Shown here: positions 36,969-47,066 of the stretch, piece by piece
How the letters are laid out: the number at the start of each line of letters is the position of its first letter
Numbering within the stretch: position 1 is the first letter of the stretch
NCBI RefSeq assembly: GCF_017357105.1
Contig: NZ_CP071596.1
Location: 1 to 64,000, forward strand
Reading direction: 5' to 3'
Origin: Natronosalvus caseinilyticus
Lineage (GTDB): Archaea > Halobacteriota > Halobacteria > Halobacteriales > Natrialbaceae
Length of the DNA: 64,000 nt
Notes under the pieces: model-generated
Told to the model about the DNA's origin: nothing
Databases searched by the model: none
What the model saw: only the letters and a program-made list of their open reading frames with translations
Translations under genes and position numbers: made by a program

Positions 36969-37042
36969 GGGCCAATAGCTCAATCAGGTTGAGCGCCACT
37001 CTGATAAGGTGGAGGCTCTCGGTTCAAATCCGAGTTGGCCCA
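36969..37042 (+). tRNA. tRNA-Ile (GAT)
   Basis: 74 bases. Acceptor GGGCCAA pairs with TTGGCCC, discriminator A. Anticodon arm CCACT-CTGATAA-GGTGG with GAT at 37003-37005. T arm GGTTCAAATCC. No intron and no encoded CCA. A copy of its last 22 bases occurs 118 bases further on. Confidence 0.95.
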
Positions 37043-37159: not shown

Positions 37160-37181
37160 GGTTCAAATCCGAGTTGGCCCA
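37160..37181 (+). repeat. Copy of the tRNA-Ile 3' end (attachment-site-like)
   Basis: Identical to the last 22 bases of the tRNA-Ile gene (37021-37042). The flanks right after both copies are also related (TTCTC..GCGA..AAATTCG/CAATTTCG..GAGC..GTAC), so more than the tRNA end was once duplicated. This is the pattern left when elements integrate into tRNA 3' ends. Confidence 0.75.
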
Positions 37182-37606: not shown

Positions 37607-40600
37607 ATGAAGCGACTTGTGGCGGCGCTTTTCGTCGGTATGGTCGTGACCGGGCTGATCGTCGGTGCCTCCGGACTGACGCTCGGGAGCGTTCCGCTCG
37701 CCGGTCCAGGAGACGGCGAGACGCGACCCGAATTCCCCGCTGGTGGCGATACAATCGACGTCTCGGAGGACGGTGTCGAACTCGTCGAGTTCGACGAGAC
37801 GCACTCGGGCGCACGACAGGACAGGGAGACCGCCCAGTCCGAGCGAGAGGCGGCCGAGGAGGGTGCCGAGCGAGGGATCGAACTCGCCCAGGCACAGGGT
37901 GTGAACGTCACTCAGGAGCAGCGAGAGGCTACGACATCTGCGGCCGTCAAAGCCGCCGAACAGTACCAGGACGCGACCGTCGAGCAGATTCAGCGCGCCG
38001 CAACGGGGGCGGTTCACGGCGCGTTGCTCCAGCATCAGGCGGTCAACGTTACGCAGTTACAGTCGGCCGTGACCGGCAGCGCGGACGGTGCGCTGAGCCA
38101 GCACCAGTCGGCCAACGTGACGCAGATGCAGAACGCGGCGTGGGGTGGGGCCCACGGCGCGCTCGACCAGTACCAGTCGGTGACGGTCGAGCAGATCCAG
38201 TACGCGGCCCGCGGCGCCGCGGCAGGCGCCGCACGCGAGGCCGGCGAGAAGGAGGTCGGTCACGTCGGCGTGATACAGGAGGCGGCCCAGGGTGCGGCCC
38301 ACGGGGCGCTCGAGGCCACGAAGAAGCAGAAGCACCCCTCCCGACAGCACGTCGTCCAGCGCCAAGAGATAACCGTCGAGCAAATTCAACACGCGGCGGC
38401 GGGGGCGGCGGCAGGTGTCGTCGACGGGCATCAGGAACAGCGCGTCAGGGTCGAGCAGCGACAGCACGCGACGATCAAGCAGGTCCAGACGGCCGCATTG
38501 GGCGCCGCGAAGGGCGCGCTCGTCCAGAAACAACGGGTCAGCGTCGAGCAGACGCAGGTCGCCGCACGCGGCGCTGCGAAGGGTGCGCTGTCGATTACAC
38601 AAATCCAGCGGGTAGAGATCACGCAGATCCAGGCGGCCGCGACCGGTGCCGCGACGGGCGCGATCTACCAGAGCCAGGAGGCGACGATCGAACAGATCCA
38701 GGCGGCGGCGATCGGCGCAGCGAGGGGAACGATCGTCCAGAAACAGGCAGTCCACGTGACGCAGATCCAGTACGCCGCTCGCGGCGCCGCGATGGGTGCC
38801 GTCGAATCCGCGATCCAGTACCAGAGCGTCACCGTGGCGCAGATCCAGGCCGCGGCGATGGGGGCCGGGAAAGGCGCCGTCGAACAGACCCAGTCGGTGC
38901 GCGTACAGCAGGTACAGTCGATCGCCCGCGGCGCGACGAAGGGCGTCCTGTCGGTCGCCCAGGAACAGCGCGTGACGATCCTTCAGATACAGAAGGCGGC
39001 CGAAGTAACGTGTCAGTCGGTCTCGAAGGAGGTCCAGACCCAGCGGGTCACCGTCGAGCAGGTTCAGCGGATCAGCGAACGTACTGCCATGGACACGACC
39101 CAGCAGACGGTCGATGATGACCTCAACCGCGAGGTCGACATCCGCGAGCGCGCGGAGGCGAGCGCGGTCGATAGAACCGCCGAAGAAGAGCCTGCGGAGG
39201 GGGAGGCGACAGTGAGCACCATCGGTCAGACGATCGACGGGGAGACGGTCACGATCGACGATGTGACGCTCTCGGAGGGCGGGTTCGTCGCCGTTCACGA
39301 CGCAAGGTGGTTGGAAGGCGAACGCGCCGACAGCGTGATCGGCGTCTCCGAGTACCTCGAGCCCGGCGAGCACGAATCGGTGACCGTTACCCTGTTCGAG
39401 GACGCTCCAGGGGCCGAGTACGAAGTCGACGCGCTCGAGGCAGGCGAGCACTCGCTCTTCGTCGTCCCGTATCGCGACGGCGACGACGACCAGGAGTTCG
39501 ATTGGATCGACACCGACGACGGGGCAGATCCGCCGTACGTCCGGCAGGGCGGCGAACCGGTGGTGGCATCGATCGAGGCGACGGTCGCCGAGGAACGGTC
39601 CGCCGACCTCGAGGTCACTGACCAGGCCGGGGACGGGGAAACGGTGACCGTCGAGCGCGCGACGGCAAACGTCGAGTTCTACGTCGAGGCGAGCAACGGC
39701 GACCGGGTCGTTCAGAGCGAGGGCTTCGGGGCGAACGAGACCGCCGCCAATCTGACGCTCGACCTGGACCCGCCGCTCGGGGAGGCTACCGACCTCGAGG
39801 TGACGATCCGTGCCGTCGAGGACGGTGAGGGACTCGAGTCGGCGGAACTCGAATACGAAGTCGACGCCGCCGTCGCCGATGAACCGGCGGAGGCGACGGC
39901 GAGCCTGAACGTTTCAGACCAGACCGGCGACGGGGGGACCCTCGTCGTCGAAAACGTCACGGCAACCGTCGACTTCTTCGTCGAGGGTCGTTACGACGAT
40001 GAGGTAGTGCAAAGCGAATCGTTCGACGCCGACGAGGTCGTCGAGAACCTGACGCTCGAACTCGAACCGCCCCTCGAGGAGACCAGCGACGTCGAGGTCG
40101 CCGTCAGAGCCGATGACGACGATTCGGAACTGACGGTTCAGACGATCGAGTACGTTCTCGAGGTCCCGGTGGCATTCCTCGATTGTACCACGCTCGAGGT
40201 CCGGGACGCGGCCGCGTTTGATGGGGCCTCGCTACGCGTTTCGTATCTGGAGGGCCCCTTCACAGGCGACGAGATCGATCTCGAGAGCGACGACCTCGCG
40301 GAGACGGTCGACGGCTCGATCGAAGACGGGGCCGTCCTCTCGACGGCCGATCTGTACCCCTTCAGCGAGTTCACCCACTACGTCGAGTTCGCGTCCTTCG
40401 CCGAAGCCGACGACGAGAACGTCGTCGAGAATCCGAACCCGGCGACCGTCGAGGACTGTCAGGAGCTCGGCTTCGGCGAGCGTCCGACCGCCGACGTCGC
40501 GTTCGCCGACCAGGAGACCGACGGAACGAGCGCGACCGTCGACGCCGTGTCCCTCTCGGAAGGCGGCTTCGTCGCCCTCTACGAGGCGGGAGCGCCGGTC

Positions 40601-41569
40601 GAGAACGAGACCGTTCTCGGCGTCTCCGAGTACCTCGAGCCCGGCGAGCACGAGAACGTCACCGTCGACATCGAGGAATCGATCGACGAGGACCGGACGC
40701 TCGTCACGGTCGTCCACCGCGACCTGACCGGCGACGGCCAGTTTACGTTCGAGAGCGTCGAGACGATCGGCGTCCACGACGGCCCCTACCTCGACGAGGA
40801 CGGCGATCCCGTCGCCGACGAGGCCGAGCTCCTCCTCTCGGCCGAGTTCGCCGTCTCGATCGCCGACGCGCCCGAAACCGTCGAGTCCGACCAGCCGATC
40901 GAACTATCCGTCGAGGTGGAGAATCGCGGCGCCGGCCCCGGCGAGGCGCCCGTGGTGATCGACGTCGGCGCGCAGGAGGCGGTCGTCGGCGAGTCCGTCG
41001 CTCTCTCGCCCGGCGAGACGACGACGCTCACGGTGGCCGTCGACCCACCGGCAGACGCCGTCGGCGAACTCGAGCTGACAGTTCGCGTCGACGACCCAGA
41101 CGTGGCCGCGCCCGAGGAGGGAAGCGATTCGGTGACCGTCACCGTCGAGGAGGCCGGCGAACCGGCGTTCGAGGTGACGGCCCTCGACGCGCCCGAAACC
41201 GTCGAGGCGGGCGAGTTCATCGAGGTCGCTGCGGAGGTAACGAACGTCGGCGAGGCCCCCGGTGAAGCCGAAGTGGTGTTCGACATCGGCGGCTTCGACG
41301 CCGCTACCGATTTCGTCTCGCTCTCTCCCGACGAAACGGCGACGCTCGTCGTCACCGTCGAGACCGGCCCGGGCGACGTCGGCGACCTCGAGATCGGGGT
41401 TCGCACGGCCGACGACCGGACGTCGACGACCGTCGAGGTGATCGGGTCTTCGAACGAGGACGACCAGCAGGGCGCTCGAGCGGGACCGACGGCTGGGACG
41501 AATCCGGCAGTCTCGGCGTCCGCGTACGTACCGAGCTATCTGATCTCGGTCGATCGAGTGGACTCGTAG
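37607..41569 (+). CDS. 1320-residue secreted protein with Gln/Ala/Gly 23-25 residue repeats, DUF7282-like and CARDB-like modules
   Basis: N-terminal signal (KRLVAALFVGMVVTGLIVGA), an acidic linker, then about 16 tandem units (residues about 99-500) with consensus V-x-V-E/T-Q-I-Q-x-A-A-x-G-A-A-x-G-A-L-x-Q-x-Q; units 6, 8 and 9 carry insertions. Next are a DUF7282-like domain (SEGGFVAVHD to the SEYLEPGEHESVTV region, about 535-660), two related beta modules (about 665-850), a two-Cys module (LDCTTLEV and VEDCQELGF), a second DUF7282-like domain (about 965-1080) and two CARDB-like Ig modules (about 1085-1270). No C-terminal PGF motif or membrane anchor is visible. Several N-x-T sequons lie in the repeats, so N-glycosylation is possible. 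Probably a released or cell-surface fibrous protein; function unknown. Confidence 0.85.
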   Translation: MKRLVAALFVGMVVTGLIVGASGLTLGSVPLAGPGDGETRPEFPAGGDTIDVSEDGVELVEFDETHSGARQDRETAQSEREAAEEGAERGIELAQAQGVNVTQEQREATTSAAVKAAEQYQDATVEQIQRAATGAVHGALLQHQAVNVTQLQSAVTGSADGALSQHQSANVTQMQNAAWGGAHGALDQYQSVTVEQIQYAARGAAAGAAREAGEKEVGHVGVIQEAAQGAAHGALEATKKQKHPSRQHVVQRQEITVEQIQHAAAGAAAGVVDGHQEQRVRVEQRQHATIKQVQTAALGAAKGALVQKQRVSVEQTQVAARGAAKGALSITQIQRVEITQIQAAATGAATGAIYQSQEATIEQIQAAAIGAARGTIVQKQAVHVTQIQYAARGAAMGAVESAIQYQSVTVAQIQAAAMGAGKGAVEQTQSVRVQQVQSIARGATKGVLSVAQEQRVTILQIQKAAEVTCQSVSKEVQTQRVTVEQVQRISERTAMDTTQQTVDDDLNREVDIRERAEASAVDRTAEEEPAEGEATVSTIGQTIDGETVTIDDVTLSEGGFVAVHDARWLEGERADSVIGVSEYLEPGEHESVTVTLFEDAPGAEYEVDALEAGEHSLFVVPYRDGDDDQEFDWIDTDDGADPPYVRQGGEPVVASIEATVAEERSADLEVTDQAGDGETVTVERATANVEFYVEASNGDRVVQSEGFGANETAANLTLDLDPPLGEATDLEVTIRAVEDGEGLESAELEYEVDAAVADEPAEATASLNVSDQTGDGGTLVVENVTATVDFFVEGRYDDEVVQSESFDADEVVENLTLELEPPLEETSDVEVAVRADDDDSELTVQTIEYVLEVPVAFLDCTTLEVRDAAAFDGASLRVSYLEGPFTGDEIDLESDDLAETVDGSIEDGAVLSTADLYPFSEFTHYVEFASFAEADDENVVENPNPATVEDCQELGFGERPTADVAFADQETDGTSATVDAVSLSEGGFVALYEAGAPVENETVLGVSEYLEPGEHENVTVDIEESIDEDRTLVTVVHRDLTGDGQFTFESVETIGVHDGPYLDEDGDPVADEAELLLSAEFAVSIADAPETVESDQPIELSVEVENRGAGPGEAPVVIDVGAQEAVVGESVALSPGETTTLTVAVDPPADAVGELELTVRVDDPDVAAPEEGSDSVTVTVEEAGEPAFEVTALDAPETVEAGEFIEVAAEVTNVGEAPGEAEVVFDIGGFDAATDFVSLSPDETATLVVTVETGPGDVGDLEIGVRTADDRTSTTVEVIGSSNEDDQQGARAGPTAGTNPAVSASAYVPSYLISVDRVDS
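37901..39110 (+). repeat. Coding tandem repeat, about 16 units of 69-75 bases
   Basis: Units are degenerate at DNA level and conserved at protein level, with spacing kept in frame. The conserved residues are the alternating V/Q strand (VTVEQIQ) and the small-residue helix (AARGAAKGAL). Confidence 0.85.
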
Positions 41570-42025: not shown

Positions 42026-42150
42026 GCATGGGGAATACCAGTTAGTCGTCGTCTCCAGAACCTTCGATTCTGGTGGGCTGCACGAGACTCTTAGTCTCGT
42101 GAACGCTGGCAGAGGGTTTCGACTCTTCGTAGGCCGTGAGCGTCATCTGC
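41989..42150 (-). ncRNA. Candidate omega (guide) RNA of the TnpB element
   Basis: IS200/IS605 TnpB proteins use an RNA from the 3' end of tnpB and the right end of the element. Here the minus strand holds the tnpB 3' end followed by a hairpin of 8 bp with a 4-base loop (41998-42017) that ends at about 41989. The guide would continue into the cupin gene. Extent is an estimate. Confidence 0.4.
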
Positions 42151-43353
42151 GCTGGTATGCTCTGCTCACAGTGAGTCGTGGCGGTGTCACAACCGCGCCC
42201 GTCCCGAGGCGAGTCATCGCGCTCCGCCTTGTCAAGCGGGACGCTCTCTCCCCACGGGTCAACCCGCCGTGCGATATTCGCGGAAGCGTTGATGTCGGCC
42301 TGAAACGTCGAAACGTGGCAGTCGTCGTGCGGACACCGGAACTCGGCCTGGGAGTCCCGCCGACCGATACGGTGGCACGAGTGGCACGTCTTCGAGGTGT
42401 ACGCCGGATTCACGTACTCGACTGGGATGCCTGCTTCCGTCGCCTTGTCCTCGATACGCCCTTGCAGTCGGGCGAACGCCCACGAGTGAAGCCGACGGTT
42501 CATGTACTTCCCGTAGTCGAGCCGTTCGCGGATGTACGTCAAGTCCTCCATCACCAACACCGGGCTCTCGAACTGTTTGGCGTACTCGACGGCCTGTCGA
42601 GACGCCTTTTCCACGATGTCGGTGAGCGCGTTCTGGTAATGTGAGGAGCGGTCGTCGGTACGCCACTCGGATGTGTCACGCTCTTGGAGGCGTTTCAGGG
42701 TGGTGTGCATCGCTTTGCGGAGATGCTTTGCTCTGCTTCCGCTACGCACGAACGGGTCAGTTGGAGAACCGTCCTTGAGGGCACAGCCCGTGATGAGGGC
42801 AGTCTCTCCGATGTCTAAGCCGATGTGCGTGGCGTCACCGTCCGTCGCTGGTTCTTTGACCAGGTACTCGACGGTGACGTGCAGTACCCAGCTCTTCCGA
42901 TGCTTCTGAAGCCGTATCTCGCCCGCCCTTCGCGTCCTCCGATACGAGGGCGTGCCAGAGGTCCTCCTGTTCAGGGTTGATGCGAAGCGGAATCCAAAAG
43001 TACGTTCCCCGACCGGGACGGGGAACCCACCACGTGAACTCGTAGTGACGTTCTTCGGAGTGGTCGAACGTCGCGGCTTGGTTCGTGAGGCGTATCGGGT
43101 GTTCGTCGTCCAATTCCTTCGCGTTGTACGTCTTGTGGAGTTTCGGGACGTAGTTGCAGAGGGCGGCTTTGGCCTGATACGGCAGGTCGTAGGGCGTCAC
43201 GATGTCACTCACCGCCGACATGGTACTCGCCCCAGCGTCGAACGCCTCTTGCAGACCGTCACGATACGTGTTGAGCAGGTCGTTGAGTTTCGACTGCTTG
43301 TGCGTGGTCGGTGGGGAAAACGTCGCTTGAAGCGTCTTAGTTATCGTCGTCAC
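42042..43353 (-). pseudogene. tnpB: TnpB RNA-guided nuclease, one-base frameshift
   Basis: Starts GTG at 43353. The N-terminal part (142 codons to DLWHALVSEDAK) and the rest (AGEIRLQKHRKSWVLHVTV onward) are joined by removing one G from GGG near 42920-42929. Repaired length is about 436 residues. RuvC residues: Asp in GLDIGET (about 180), Glu in VMEDLTY (about 269), Asp in QADINASANIA (about 353); zinc finger Cys at about 323, 326, 340 and 345. All catalytic parts are intact apart from the shift. Either a recent mutation or a homopolymer read error. Confidence 0.88.
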
Positions 43354-43480: not shown

Positions 43481-43677
43481 AACTCTTTGAACGTTTTCTT
43501 GGTGCTAATAACTTCTGTTTGGAATTCAGGCTGCTGTAAACGGTGGGTTGCGTAGTCAAGTGACGCGATTCACGCCCGCTGTGAACGGCGGGATTCTCTC
43601 GCTGTTCAAAGATAGGAGAATTCTCGCACTCGTCGCCTATGAAACCACGCGAAGCGGAACGTGACTGCCGACACCCG

Positions 43678-45000
43678 TTATTCTGGGGACGGAGCGACGA
43701 ACTGCCCGTCGTCGAACTCGAGTGGCGCCGGTTCCGAAACGACGCGAAGATCCGCCCGGTCCCGCGCGGCGTCGACGAGCGGACTCGAGGCGTAACACCG
43801 CTTCAGGCGCATCGTGTCCGTCACCCTGAGAACGCGAGCGTCTTCACCTGGAACGGGGCCGATGGTGCCGAGGGCGGCCACGAGTCCCGCGCGATCGGTT
43901 TCGACCACCGGCGGGAGGCGAACTCCGCGCACCGTGCTCGCGGTGATGGCGTTGATGAGGGACTTCGACCAGTCGAGTTCGGCGAGTACGTCGCGATGGG
44001 CGACGTCCGCCTGGCCCATCCCCATCGCGTTCCCCTTCGTCTTCTCGGTGAGGCCGCGAGCGAAGACGCGCTTGATCTCGGGCGAGTCCGGTTCGGGTTC
44101 GTTGATCGTGAAGTGGCGCCGACCCGTGACGTTGGGATCCATCCCCTGGCCGCTGACGTCCTTGCCGAGTCGATCGACGACGAGGACGTCCAGTTCGTCG
44201 AACGGCAGCGTCGGCATGCGCTCCCGGGCGAGGTCGAGGAGGTCGGCCTCTCGAGTCAGAAATCCTTCCGGCGGGACGCCCTCGACGAGCGTGGTGTCGT
44301 CGTGCTGGTCTTCGACGACTGCAACACCGCCGGCGACCGGCAGCGTCCGGAGCAACTGGTCGGCGATCTCGGGAATCATGTTGCTGAGACTCCACTCGAC
44401 CGCCCAGTCGTGGGCGAGTTTCGCGCCGCGCTGTTTCCCCATCCCGATGACGAGCATCTTCGAGAGGCCGCTCTCGACGTCACCGCTGAAGCCGGTGTGG
44501 GGCTTGATCCGGTTTATCGGCACGATGGCGTCCGCCTCGACCGCATACGCGTCGGCGTACACTGGCACCCCGCGATCCGGCGTCTCGCCGACCTGCACGA
44601 CGTCCATGGTCGCCCGGATCGCACAGCCGATCGACGCCTCGGTGACGCCGAGGGTCTCGAGTTTGTCGCGCTGACCCGCAGCGGTCGCCCCGCCGTGGCT
44701 CCCCATCGCGGGAACGACGAAGGGGTCGTACCCGCGGTCCTCGAGCGCGTCGACGACGCCGCGAACGATCTCGGGGAGGTTGTCGATGCCGCGGCTGCCG
44801 ACGCCGACGGCCACCTCGCCGCCCGCGGGGACGTCCCTGAACTCGAGGGCGGCCACCGCCTCGGCTGCCTCGGCCGCGACGTCTTCGGGCGGGATGGGGT
44901 CGGTCTCCCACCGCTGTTCGATGACGCCCATCCGCGGAAGCACGACGTCTCCGCAGGCGTCCTGGACGGTCGACTCGCCAATCGCGAGTTCGTCGATCAT
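43678..45000 (-). CDS. LarA-like protein (lactate racemase N-terminal domain, DUF2088)
   Basis: 440 residues from the ATG at 45000. Seen: VGVGSRGIDNLPEIV, VPAMGSHGGATAAGQRD and NRIKPHTGFSGDVESGLSK, typical of the LarA/DUF2088 family whose lactate racemase uses a nickel-pincer cofactor. No larB/C/E maturation genes are adjacent, so substrate and cofactor are uncertain. A TTG nine codons upstream is rejected in favour of the ATG. Confidence 0.85.
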   Translation of the reverse strand: MIDELAIGESTVQDACGDVVLPRMGVIEQRWETDPIPPEDVAAEAAEAVAALEFRDVPAGGEVAVGVGSRGIDNLPEIVRGVVDALEDRGYDPFVVPAMGSHGGATAAGQRDKLETLGVTEASIGCAIRATMDVVQVGETPDRGVPVYADAYAVEADAIVPINRIKPHTGFSGDVESGLSKMLVIGMGKQRGAKLAHDWAVEWSLSNMIPEIADQLLRTLPVAGGVAVVEDQHDDTTLVEGVPPEGFLTREADLLDLARERMPTLPFDELDVLVVDRLGKDVSGQGMDPNVTGRRHFTINEPEPDSPEIKRVFARGLTEKTKGNAMGMGQADVAHRDVLAELDWSKSLINAITASTVRGVRLPPVVETDRAGLVAALGTIGPVPGEDARVLRVTDTMRLKRCYASSPLVDAARDRADLRVVSEPAPLEFDDGQFVAPSPE

Positions 45001-45094
45001 GGGCGCGTAGACGGTGGTGACCGTCAAAAGCGTGTGGGCGAGGTGATCGCCGCTTCCTCAGGGCTTTTTTCTCCTGGCCGCGAACGATCGGTGC

Positions 45095-46108
45095 ATGACC
45101 GACTCGTTCGACGACGTCGACCTCGAGTTCGTTCCGCTCGGTCGAACCGGCATCCAGACCAGCGAGCTCCAGTTCGGGACCTGGCGTTTCGGCCGGACCA
45201 CGGAGGAGGGGAACCTCGAGATCACCGAAGAACGCGCCCACGAATTGCTCGACGCCTACGCCGAGGCCGGCGGTCGGTACATCGACACGGCCGACGTCTA
45301 CGGCGGCGGCGACAGCGAGCGCTGGATCGGCGACTGGCTCGCCGACCGCGACCGCGAGCGCTACACCATCGCCTCGAAGATCTACTGGCAGATCCGCGAC
45401 GGCGATCCGAACAGCAAGGGGACGAACCGGAAGACCGTCCGGAACCGTATCGACGCGCTCCTGGATCGCCTCGACACCGACTACGTCGACGTCCTCTACA
45501 TTCACCGCTGGGACGACGCGACCTCGACCCGCGAACTGATGAAGACGCTGAACGGACTCGTCGAGGACGGCAAGGTCCACTACCTCGGCGCGTCGACTCT
45601 GCGACCGAACGCCTGGAAGGTCGCTCGGGCGAACGCCATCGCCGACGCCCACGGCTGGGAGCCCTTCACCGTGCTCCAGCCACGGTACAACCTCGTCGAT
45701 CGGGAGATCGAGGGCGACTACCTCGAGTTCGCCCGACAGCGCGACCTCGCGGTCTGTCCGTGGAGCCCGCTCGGACAGGGCTTCCTGACCGGGAAGTACT
45801 CCCGAGAGGAGGACGTCCCGGAGGACTCGAAGTCCGCCGAATCGAGTCGGTTCAGGGACAATTACCTCACCGAGGAGAACTTCGACCTGCACGACGAACT
45901 CGACGCGGTCGCCGAGGAGGTCGACGCGTCGCCGGCCCAGGTTGCCCTCGCGTGGCTCTCCCACCGCGACGGCGTCAGCGCACCCATCGTCGGCGCCCGG
46001 ACGGTCGAGCAACTCGAGGAGAACCTCGCGGCCGCGGCAGTCGACCTCTCCGACGAACAGGTCGAGCGCCTGACGACCGCGAAGGCGGGCCCCTACGAGG
46101 GACTGTAA
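45095..46108 (+). CDS. Aldo/keto reductase
   Basis: NAD(P)H-dependent carbonyl reductase, TIM barrel, 337 residues. Catalytic tetrad members: Asp and Tyr in YIDTADVYGGG, Lys in ASKIYWQ and His in YIHRWDD. Cofactor end: GARTVEQLEENLAA. Belongs to the bacterial-like AKR11/12-type (potassium-channel-beta-like) group. Divergent from the LarA-like gene. Substrate unknown. Confidence 0.93.
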   Translation: MTDSFDDVDLEFVPLGRTGIQTSELQFGTWRFGRTTEEGNLEITEERAHELLDAYAEAGGRYIDTADVYGGGDSERWIGDWLADRDRERYTIASKIYWQIRDGDPNSKGTNRKTVRNRIDALLDRLDTDYVDVLYIHRWDDATSTRELMKTLNGLVEDGKVHYLGASTLRPNAWKVARANAIADAHGWEPFTVLQPRYNLVDREIEGDYLEFARQRDLAVCPWSPLGQGFLTGKYSREEDVPEDSKSAESSRFRDNYLTEENFDLHDELDAVAEEVDASPAQVALAWLSHRDGVSAPIVGARTVEQLEENLAAAAVDLSDEQVERLTTAKAGPYEGL

Positions 46109-46303
46109 CGACCTCGAAGACGCTCACCGACTCGAGTACCGGGCCCTCACGGGCGACCAGTACGGATATTCGACACTGCTGGGATGGCGAGGGCTGACCG
46201 TTCGCGATGACAGCGACCGTGACCACGGCGGAAAAGTGGACGTATCCGCAATCTCGAGACGGGCGACGGATTCATACTGTCGTGTCTCCTCACAGACGAC
46301 AAA

Positions 46304-46954
46304 ATGATGCTGCCGACCCACGCGTTCGCGGGGATGGTGATCGCCCTCCCGTACGCACTCGTGTTCCCCGAATTCGCCCCTGTGGCTCTGCTCGCCGGGT
46401 TTCTCGGCGGGGTCGTTCCGGACCTGGATCTGTACACAGGCCACCGGAAGACGCTCCACTACCCGGTGTACTACCCGGGAGCCGCCGCCGTCGCCGTTTC
46501 GGTCGCCGCCCTGTGGCCGACGCCTGCCACGACCGCCGTCGCGTGGTTCCTGCTCGGCGCCGCCACCCACAGCGTCGCCGACGTCTTCGGTGGCGGCCTG
46601 GAGCTTCGACCGTGGGAAGCCACCTCGAGTCGAGCCGTCTACGACCACCACAACCGCCGGTGGATCGCCCCACGTCGCTGGGTCCGCTACGACGGGTCGC
46701 CGGAGGATCTGGCGCTGTCGGTCGCCCTTGCCGTTCCGCTCGTGGTCGCCCTCGAGGGTGCGATCGAGTGGCTCGTGATCGCGTTCCTGGGTATCGCGGT
46801 CGCGTACGCGGCCGTTCGACGGATCCTGCCCGCAGTCGCCAGCCGACTGATCGGCGACCTCGTGGTCCCGAACGCCTCGAGTCGCGTCCTGGCGTACGTT
46901 CCAGCCCGCTATCTGGATCTCAACGCGGAACGCGGTTCGACGCAGTCTCGGTAG
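46304..46954 (+). CDS. Membrane metal-dependent hydrolase (YdjM/DUF457-like)
   Basis: 216 residues with four or more membrane segments and the family's metal-ligand pattern: HAFAGM, GVVPDLDLYTGHRKTLHYP and THSVADVFGGGLELRPWE. Bacterial relatives (YdjM) are LexA-controlled membrane proteins; the archaeal reaction is unknown. Start at 46304 (ATG ATG). Same strand as the next gene but separated by 112 bases. Confidence 0.85.
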   Translation: MMLPTHAFAGMVIALPYALVFPEFAPVALLAGFLGGVVPDLDLYTGHRKTLHYPVYYPGAAAVAVSVAALWPTPATTAVAWFLLGAATHSVADVFGGGLELRPWEATSSRAVYDHHNRRWIAPRRWVRYDGSPEDLALSVALAVPLVVALEGAIEWLVIAFLGIAVAYAAVRRILPAVASRLIGDLVVPNASSRVLAYVPARYLDLNAERGSTQSR

Positions 46955-47066
46955 CCTCGAGTAGGGAGCCTCGTTTTCGCTAGAGAAAATATAGCAAGGG
47001 CGCGAGATCTCGTAGAAACGACCAAAGAATCATGCCAACTCGGCGTCAGTCTTCAGCGAGGCGTTC

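What the first reader, a model, noticed from the sequence alone, without database searches (positions are those of the whole stretch)
37607..41569. 1320-residue secreted protein built from about 16 Gln/Ala/Gly repeats: possible new fibre or matrix protein
After a Sec-type signal, residues about 99-500 repeat a 23-25 residue unit, V-x-V-E/T-Q-I-Q-x-A-A-x-G-A-A-x-G-A-L-x-Q-x-Q. Each unit has an alternating strand-like half (VTVEQIQ) and a small-residue helix-like half, with Gln at fixed places, as in amyloid-like or stacked-solenoid fibres. Several N-x-T sequons sit at the same repeat position. I know of no described family with this consensus. Secretion and fibre formation are inference.
Basis: partly seen in the sequence, partly recalled or inferred. 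Interest (0 to 1): 0.75.

Follow-up and report, generated by a model that had tools for sequence, protein, structure and literature searches.

The report
Undescribed helical-repeat surface protein of haloarchaea
Salt-loving archaea carry a large exported protein whose front part is built from 10 to 24 near-identical 23-residue blocks that are confidently predicted to fold as a stack of short helices, a repeat family missing from the family and structure libraries searched; its job on the cell surface is unknown but is most likely that of a scaffold or adhesin.

Summary
In detail: ORF 37607-41569 (+) encodes 1320 aa with a Sec-type signal and 16 units of 23-34 aa at residues 99-505, far above chance. 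It is not a one-off. The repeat domain is in 105/125 genomes of the host's family and scattered in other Halobacteria; no relative turned up outside that class. No Pfam, NCBIfam or PDB sequence match covers it. The window's own domain gives the same helices, at low confidence. Unit i matches unit i of other species better than its neighbours, so the array is old and fixed, not a length-variable fibre. The domain is neutral in charge; the C-terminal part (DUF7282, CARDB) is 26% acidic. C-termini differ among members: DUF7282/CARDB, beta-helix, acidic or Thr/Pro-rich tails, membrane anchors. Best reading: a secreted or surface alpha-solenoid scaffold/adhesin carrying exchangeable modules. Amyloid-like or strand-based fibre: not supported. 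Function, oligomeric state and glycosylation are untested. New variant of a known kind (alpha-solenoid), moderately interesting.

The parts
37607..41569 (+). complete gene, 1320 aa, monocistronic in appearance (tRNA-Ile upstream, opposite-strand cupin gene downstream)
37607..37699 (+). Sec-type signal segment (residues ~1-31; MKR n-region, hydrophobic core; no twin arginine, no lipobox cysteine)
   Evidence: sequence, hydropathy
37802..37900 (+). N-terminal helical cap of the solenoid (residues 66-98), conserved in relatives
37901..39121 (+). repeat domain, residues 99-505: 16 units of V-x-V-E/T-Q-I-Q-x-A-A-x-G-A-A-x-G-A-L-x-Q-x-Q-x, each predicted as one helix plus an extended linker
37904..37912 (+). 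N-x-T sequon, residue 100, unit position 1
38045..38053 (+). N-x-T sequon, residue 147, unit position 1
38114..38122 (+). N-x-T sequon, residue 170, unit position 1
39194..40831 (+). five DUF7282 stretches (PF23951), approximate span residues 530-1075; best stretch residues 962-1074
   Evidence: E=8e-62; outer limits of the span estimated
40847..41446 (+). two CARDB (PF07705) Ig-like stretches, approximate span residues 1081-1280; best stretch 1081-1163
   Evidence: E=5.8e-5

Best explanation
This is a member of an undescribed haloarchaeal family of exported proteins whose N-terminal domain is an alpha-solenoid made of single-helix repeats. Each 23-residue unit is one short helix (unit positions 2 to about 18, N-capped at position 1) with a small-residue surface (A8, A9, G11, A12, A13, G15, A16) that lets neighbouring helices pack very closely, joined by an extended Q-x-Q-x-V-x linker whose invariant glutamines, with Q4 and Q6 at the helix start, form uncharged hydrogen-bonded rows along the stack. 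The domain is a rigid, salt-tolerant, charge-neutral rod or superhelix of fixed length that exposes one variable stripe (positions 3, 7, 10, 14, 18); it most likely acts on the cell surface or in the surrounding matrix as a scaffold/adhesin that holds partner molecules along that stripe, while the acidic C-terminal modules (DUF7282, CARDB, in relatives beta-helix or Pro/Thr-rich tails and a membrane anchor) project from or anchor to the cell. Shown: repeat, family, export signal, domain architecture, charge pattern. Strongly predicted: all-helical solenoid. Inferred: glutamine rows, surface location, scaffold/adhesin role.
For: AlphaFold2 of L124 (Haladaptatus halobius), 476 aa, 69-row alignment: mean pLDDT 90.3, pTM 0.90, five models 87-90, 20 helices, no strands. 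The window's own domain gives the same helix-per-unit pattern, at low confidence (pLDDT 62, pTM 0.43). Unit statistics over 1257 units of 110 proteins: near-invariant Q at -4, -2, 4, 6 (the -4/-2 positions were part of the search motif); G at 11 and 15; charge almost absent at 0, 2, 5, 8, 9, 11-13, 15-17; variable stripe at 3, 7, 10, 14, 18. Unit i is 56-78% identical between species but only 34-51% to other units of the same protein. Repeat domain acidic fraction 2-14% (window 8%) against 26% in the window's C-terminal part and up to 42% in relatives; several relatives end in a hydrophobic segment plus Arg. C-terminal modules DUF7282, CARDB, beta-helix. Present in 105/125 genomes of the host family and 112/394 of the class.
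Against: The model of the window's own repeat domain is weak, with the centre (domain residues 172-294, where insertions lie) unresolved; the fold is carried over from a relative about 48% identical. Octapeptide insertions QxQxVxVx between units (219 spacings of 8 among 137 ORFs) look extended and are not explained by the helical unit. Nothing tests surface location or binding; most members, including this one, have no recognisable anchor.
Confidence: 0.6

Rival explanations
1. The repeat forms an amyloid-like or beta/alpha stacked fibre, each unit having a strand (VTVEQIQ) and a helix, with glutamine ladders.
For: Positions -4 to 3 alternate conserved/variable with period 2 (moment 0.9 at 180 degrees), and octapeptide insertions keep that alternation; Gln at fixed places, as in curli repeats (resemblance from memory).
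Against: No strand in either AlphaFold2 model, one of them at pLDDT 90; position 5 is I/V/L, which fits a buried helix position and not the exposed side of a strand; no Pfam match to any amyloid repeat.
Confidence: 0.07
2. The helical solenoid domains associate end to end or side by side into long filaments or a sheet, so the protein is a matrix or fibre component although it is not beta.
For: Uncharged, Gln/Ala/Gly-rich, highly regular surface; weak glycine-zipper similarity in 3 of 69 members (best E 0.006, marginal); large acidic tails could keep filaments soluble.
Against: Fixed unit number, specific N-terminal cap and degenerate last units look like a capped domain. No experimental evidence.
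Confidence: 0.2
3. The solenoid is a peptide- or glycan-binding module of a nutrient-capture or exoenzyme-associated surface complex rather than structural.
For: Alpha-solenoids commonly bind peptides; exposed position 10 is rich in basic and aromatic residues (21% and 20%) and 14 in K/R/H (35%).
Against: No enzyme or transporter gene is consistently next to it; neighbours differ between clades and none looks like a partner.
Confidence: 0.2

Closest known systems
Leucine-rich repeat variant (LRV, Pfam PF01816; one alpha-helix and one 3-10 helix per 24-residue unit) - from memory
   Same: one main helix per unit of nearly the same length; solenoid of many units
   Different: no Pfam match to PF01816 at E<=1 in the window protein and PF01816 is not among the families listed for 69 members; here Gln/Ala/Gly, not Leu, are conserved; exported
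TAL effectors and designed helical repeat proteins (DHR)
   Same: best Foldseek hits of both models are tandem helical repeats
   Different: TM-scores only about 0.1-0.27 normalised on the query; those have two helices per repeat unit (general knowledge); sequence unrelated
Curli/CsgA repeats (Pfam Curlin_rpt) - from memory
   Same: 22-23 aa units with Gln at fixed places, secreted
   Different: CsgA is a beta-solenoid amyloid; no Pfam hit here and the model is helical
DUF7282/CARDB-containing haloarchaeal proteins
   Same: the C-terminal two thirds of this protein belongs here; other loci in the genome match that part
   Different: those loci lack the repeat domain

Membership tests
DUF7282 (PF23951) | profile match above the gathering score | tested here: met
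   206.8 bits against cut-off 27, five stretches, C-terminal to the repeats
CARDB (PF07705) | profile match above the gathering score | tested here: met
   23.7 bits against cut-off 22.7, two stretches
Any described repeat family (Pfam, NCBIfam) | profile match over residues 99-505 | tested here: not met
   no match over the repeats in the window protein at E<=1 and no consistent family among 69 members
Alpha-solenoid (structural class) | tandem helical units stacking into one elongated domain | tested here: met
Amyloid / curli-like beta-solenoid | beta-strands at each unit | tested here: not met
   no strands in either predicted model
LRV | profile match to PF01816 | tested here: not met
   not among matches at E<=1
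LRV | alternating alpha and 3-10 helices in a right-handed superhelix | not testable with these tools
   model coordinates not available; an LRV structure does not appear in the 50 best Foldseek rows shown
Fibre-forming matrix protein | polymerisation | not testable with these tools
   needs purified protein or imaging
N-glycosylated haloarchaeal surface protein | occupied N-x-S/T sites | not testable with these tools
   three sequons in the repeats, seven later; occupancy unknown

The most novel reading that the evidence does not exclude
A new type of extracellular alpha-solenoid, one close-packed Ala/Gly helix per 23-residue unit held by rows of invariant glutamines, that haloarchaea use as a charge-neutral structural or adhesive element of the cell surface, in contrast to their usual acidic solution to high salt.
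Probability: 0.4. Interest if true: 0.65.

Novelty: new variant of a known kind. Interest (0 to 1): 0.5.

Why it matters
A repeat domain present in 84% of the searched genomes of one archaeal family, confidently predicted, without a name in Pfam or NCBIfam and without a close structural relative in PDB, is a good target for structure work. It also offers a case where a halophile builds an exported domain with few acidic residues, relying on Gln, Ala and Gly instead.

Tried and rejected
Strand/amyloid reading: rejected on two AlphaFold2 models, N-cap signature and hydrophobic position 5. Recent tandem expansion: rejected, DNA-level tandem repeats are weak and orthologous units are closer than paralogous ones. 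Operon partner: none conserved; neighbours are housekeeping or differ by clade. Several apparent conserved neighbour ORFs overlapping the gene on the opposite strand were frame echoes of the repeat in GC-rich DNA and were ignored. Inter-unit covariation to decide parallel or antiparallel helices: inconclusive; even/odd unit similarity shows only a slight excess at distance 2. Viral contigs: no relative. Plasmids: two distant haloarchaeal records. Literature: no paper on DUF7282 or glutamine-rich repeats of haloarchaea found in the held library.

Full report
The observation. The ORF at 37607-41569 on the + strand encodes 1320 residues. Residues 1-31 contain the only membrane-like hydrophobic stretch, starting MKR, without twin arginine or lipobox. 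The core motif occurs 16 times against a shuffled mean of 0.05, and identity autocorrelation peaks at lag 23 with 0.30 (shuffles at most 0.18). At DNA level the repeats are diverged, so they are not a recent expansion.

Rest of the protein. Residues ~530-1075 hold five DUF7282 stretches (E=8e-62) and ~1081-1280 two CARDB stretches (E=5.8e-5). There is no Pfam, NCBIfam or PDB sequence match over the repeats, nor with a 69-sequence profile against PDB or for 69 members scanned one by one against Pfam (only scattered weak hits, and one DUF7282 match).

Distribution. The window's genome has no second copy of the repeat. The repeat is in 112 of 394 genomes of the class, 105 of 125 of the same family, 90 of 295 of the order and, in a phylum-wide sample, in 21 of 394, all of the same order. 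All 68 loci from a scan of 84,980 species genomes are haloarchaeal by title: Natrinema, Natrialba, Natronorubrum, Haloterrigena, Natronococcus, Halorussus, Haladaptatus, Halosimplex, Halorientalis, Halobaculum and others; that scan starts from short conserved peptides, so very distant relatives could be missed. One 11,034-base contig among the same-genus loci has the length of a Natronosalvus hydrolyticus contig, which suggests the window is from Natronosalvus (inference). Viral contigs gave nothing.

Evolution. In 34 full-length rows unit i is 56-78% identical between species, while units within a protein are only 34-51% identical. Unit number and order are thus inherited as a whole within the main clade. 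Across 137 ORFs the spacing is 23 in 979 cases, 24-26 in 405, and 8 in 219 where an extra octapeptide QxQxVxVx is inserted.

Structure. The first AlphaFold2 job (window residues 66-535, 41 rows) gave pLDDT 62 and pTM 0.43, with one helix of roughly 15-23 residues per unit where resolved and no strands. The second, on the most regular relative (L124, Haladaptatus halobius, 476 residues, 69 rows), gave pLDDT 90.3, pTM 0.90 and five concordant scores; 20 helices match the units, with linkers of mostly 6-8 residues. Sequence agrees: position 1 is T/S/N/D in 86% of 1257 units (helix N-cap), position 5 is I/V/L, G11 and G15 are nearly invariant, charge is almost absent on the buried positions, and the variable positions 3, 7, 10, 14, 18 lie on one helix face. 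Linker positions alternate conserved and variable (period 2), as an extended chain with one buried side would. From helix length (about 24 A) and linker length (about 23 A if extended) all helices could be parallel, but up-and-down packing is not excluded; covariation was inconclusive. Foldseek finds tandem-helix proteins (TAL effectors, designed helical repeats) with TM-scores of at most 0.27 on the query, and nothing convincing among viral models. No cellular AlphaFold library was available, so novelty of the fold is not proven.

Charge. The repeat domains have 2-14% acidic residues (window 8%, with 8% basic), whereas the rest of the window protein has 26% and relatives up to 42%. An exported haloarchaeal domain without the usual acidic bias is unusual (general knowledge of halophiles). 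Conserved uncharged Gln and small residues fit a tightly packed, salt-tolerant solenoid (inference).

Surroundings. Upstream is tRNA-Ile and an FxsA-like gene, downstream on the other strand a cupin and a TnpB-like fragment. Two same-genus genomes share this neighbourhood; other relatives do not. No partner gene is conserved. Relatives replace the C-terminal part by other modules: beta-helix, Pro/Thr/Glu-rich tails, or a hydrophobic tail ending in Arg.

Conclusion. The finding is a real, widespread and undescribed repeat family. The most likely role is a surface or matrix scaffold/adhesin with an alpha-solenoid head. The role is inference from architecture only.

Noticed in passing
37021-37042 and 37160-37181: The last 22 bases of the tRNA-Ile gene are repeated exactly 139 bases downstream, the only two copies in the genome; looks like the attachment-site scar of an integrated element, just upstream of this gene.
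   Followed up: partly
42042-42749 (-): TnpB-like C-terminal fragment (Cas12f1-like TNB domain) downstream of the gene.
   Followed up: no
43639-46197 and 46207-46983 (+): Two adjacent ORFs (852 and 258 aa) without any Pfam match.
   Followed up: no
homologue loci such as L119, L120, L113: Exact octapeptide insertions QxQxVxVx (spacing 8) between 23-aa units in many homologues; their structure is not explained by the helical model.
   Followed up: partly
L067 (same genus) compared with the window: One same-genus genome carries its only copy with the neighbours typical of the rest of the family, at 57% identity, whereas the window and two others have a diverged copy next to tRNA-Ile; possible replacement by gene transfer.
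   Followed up: partly
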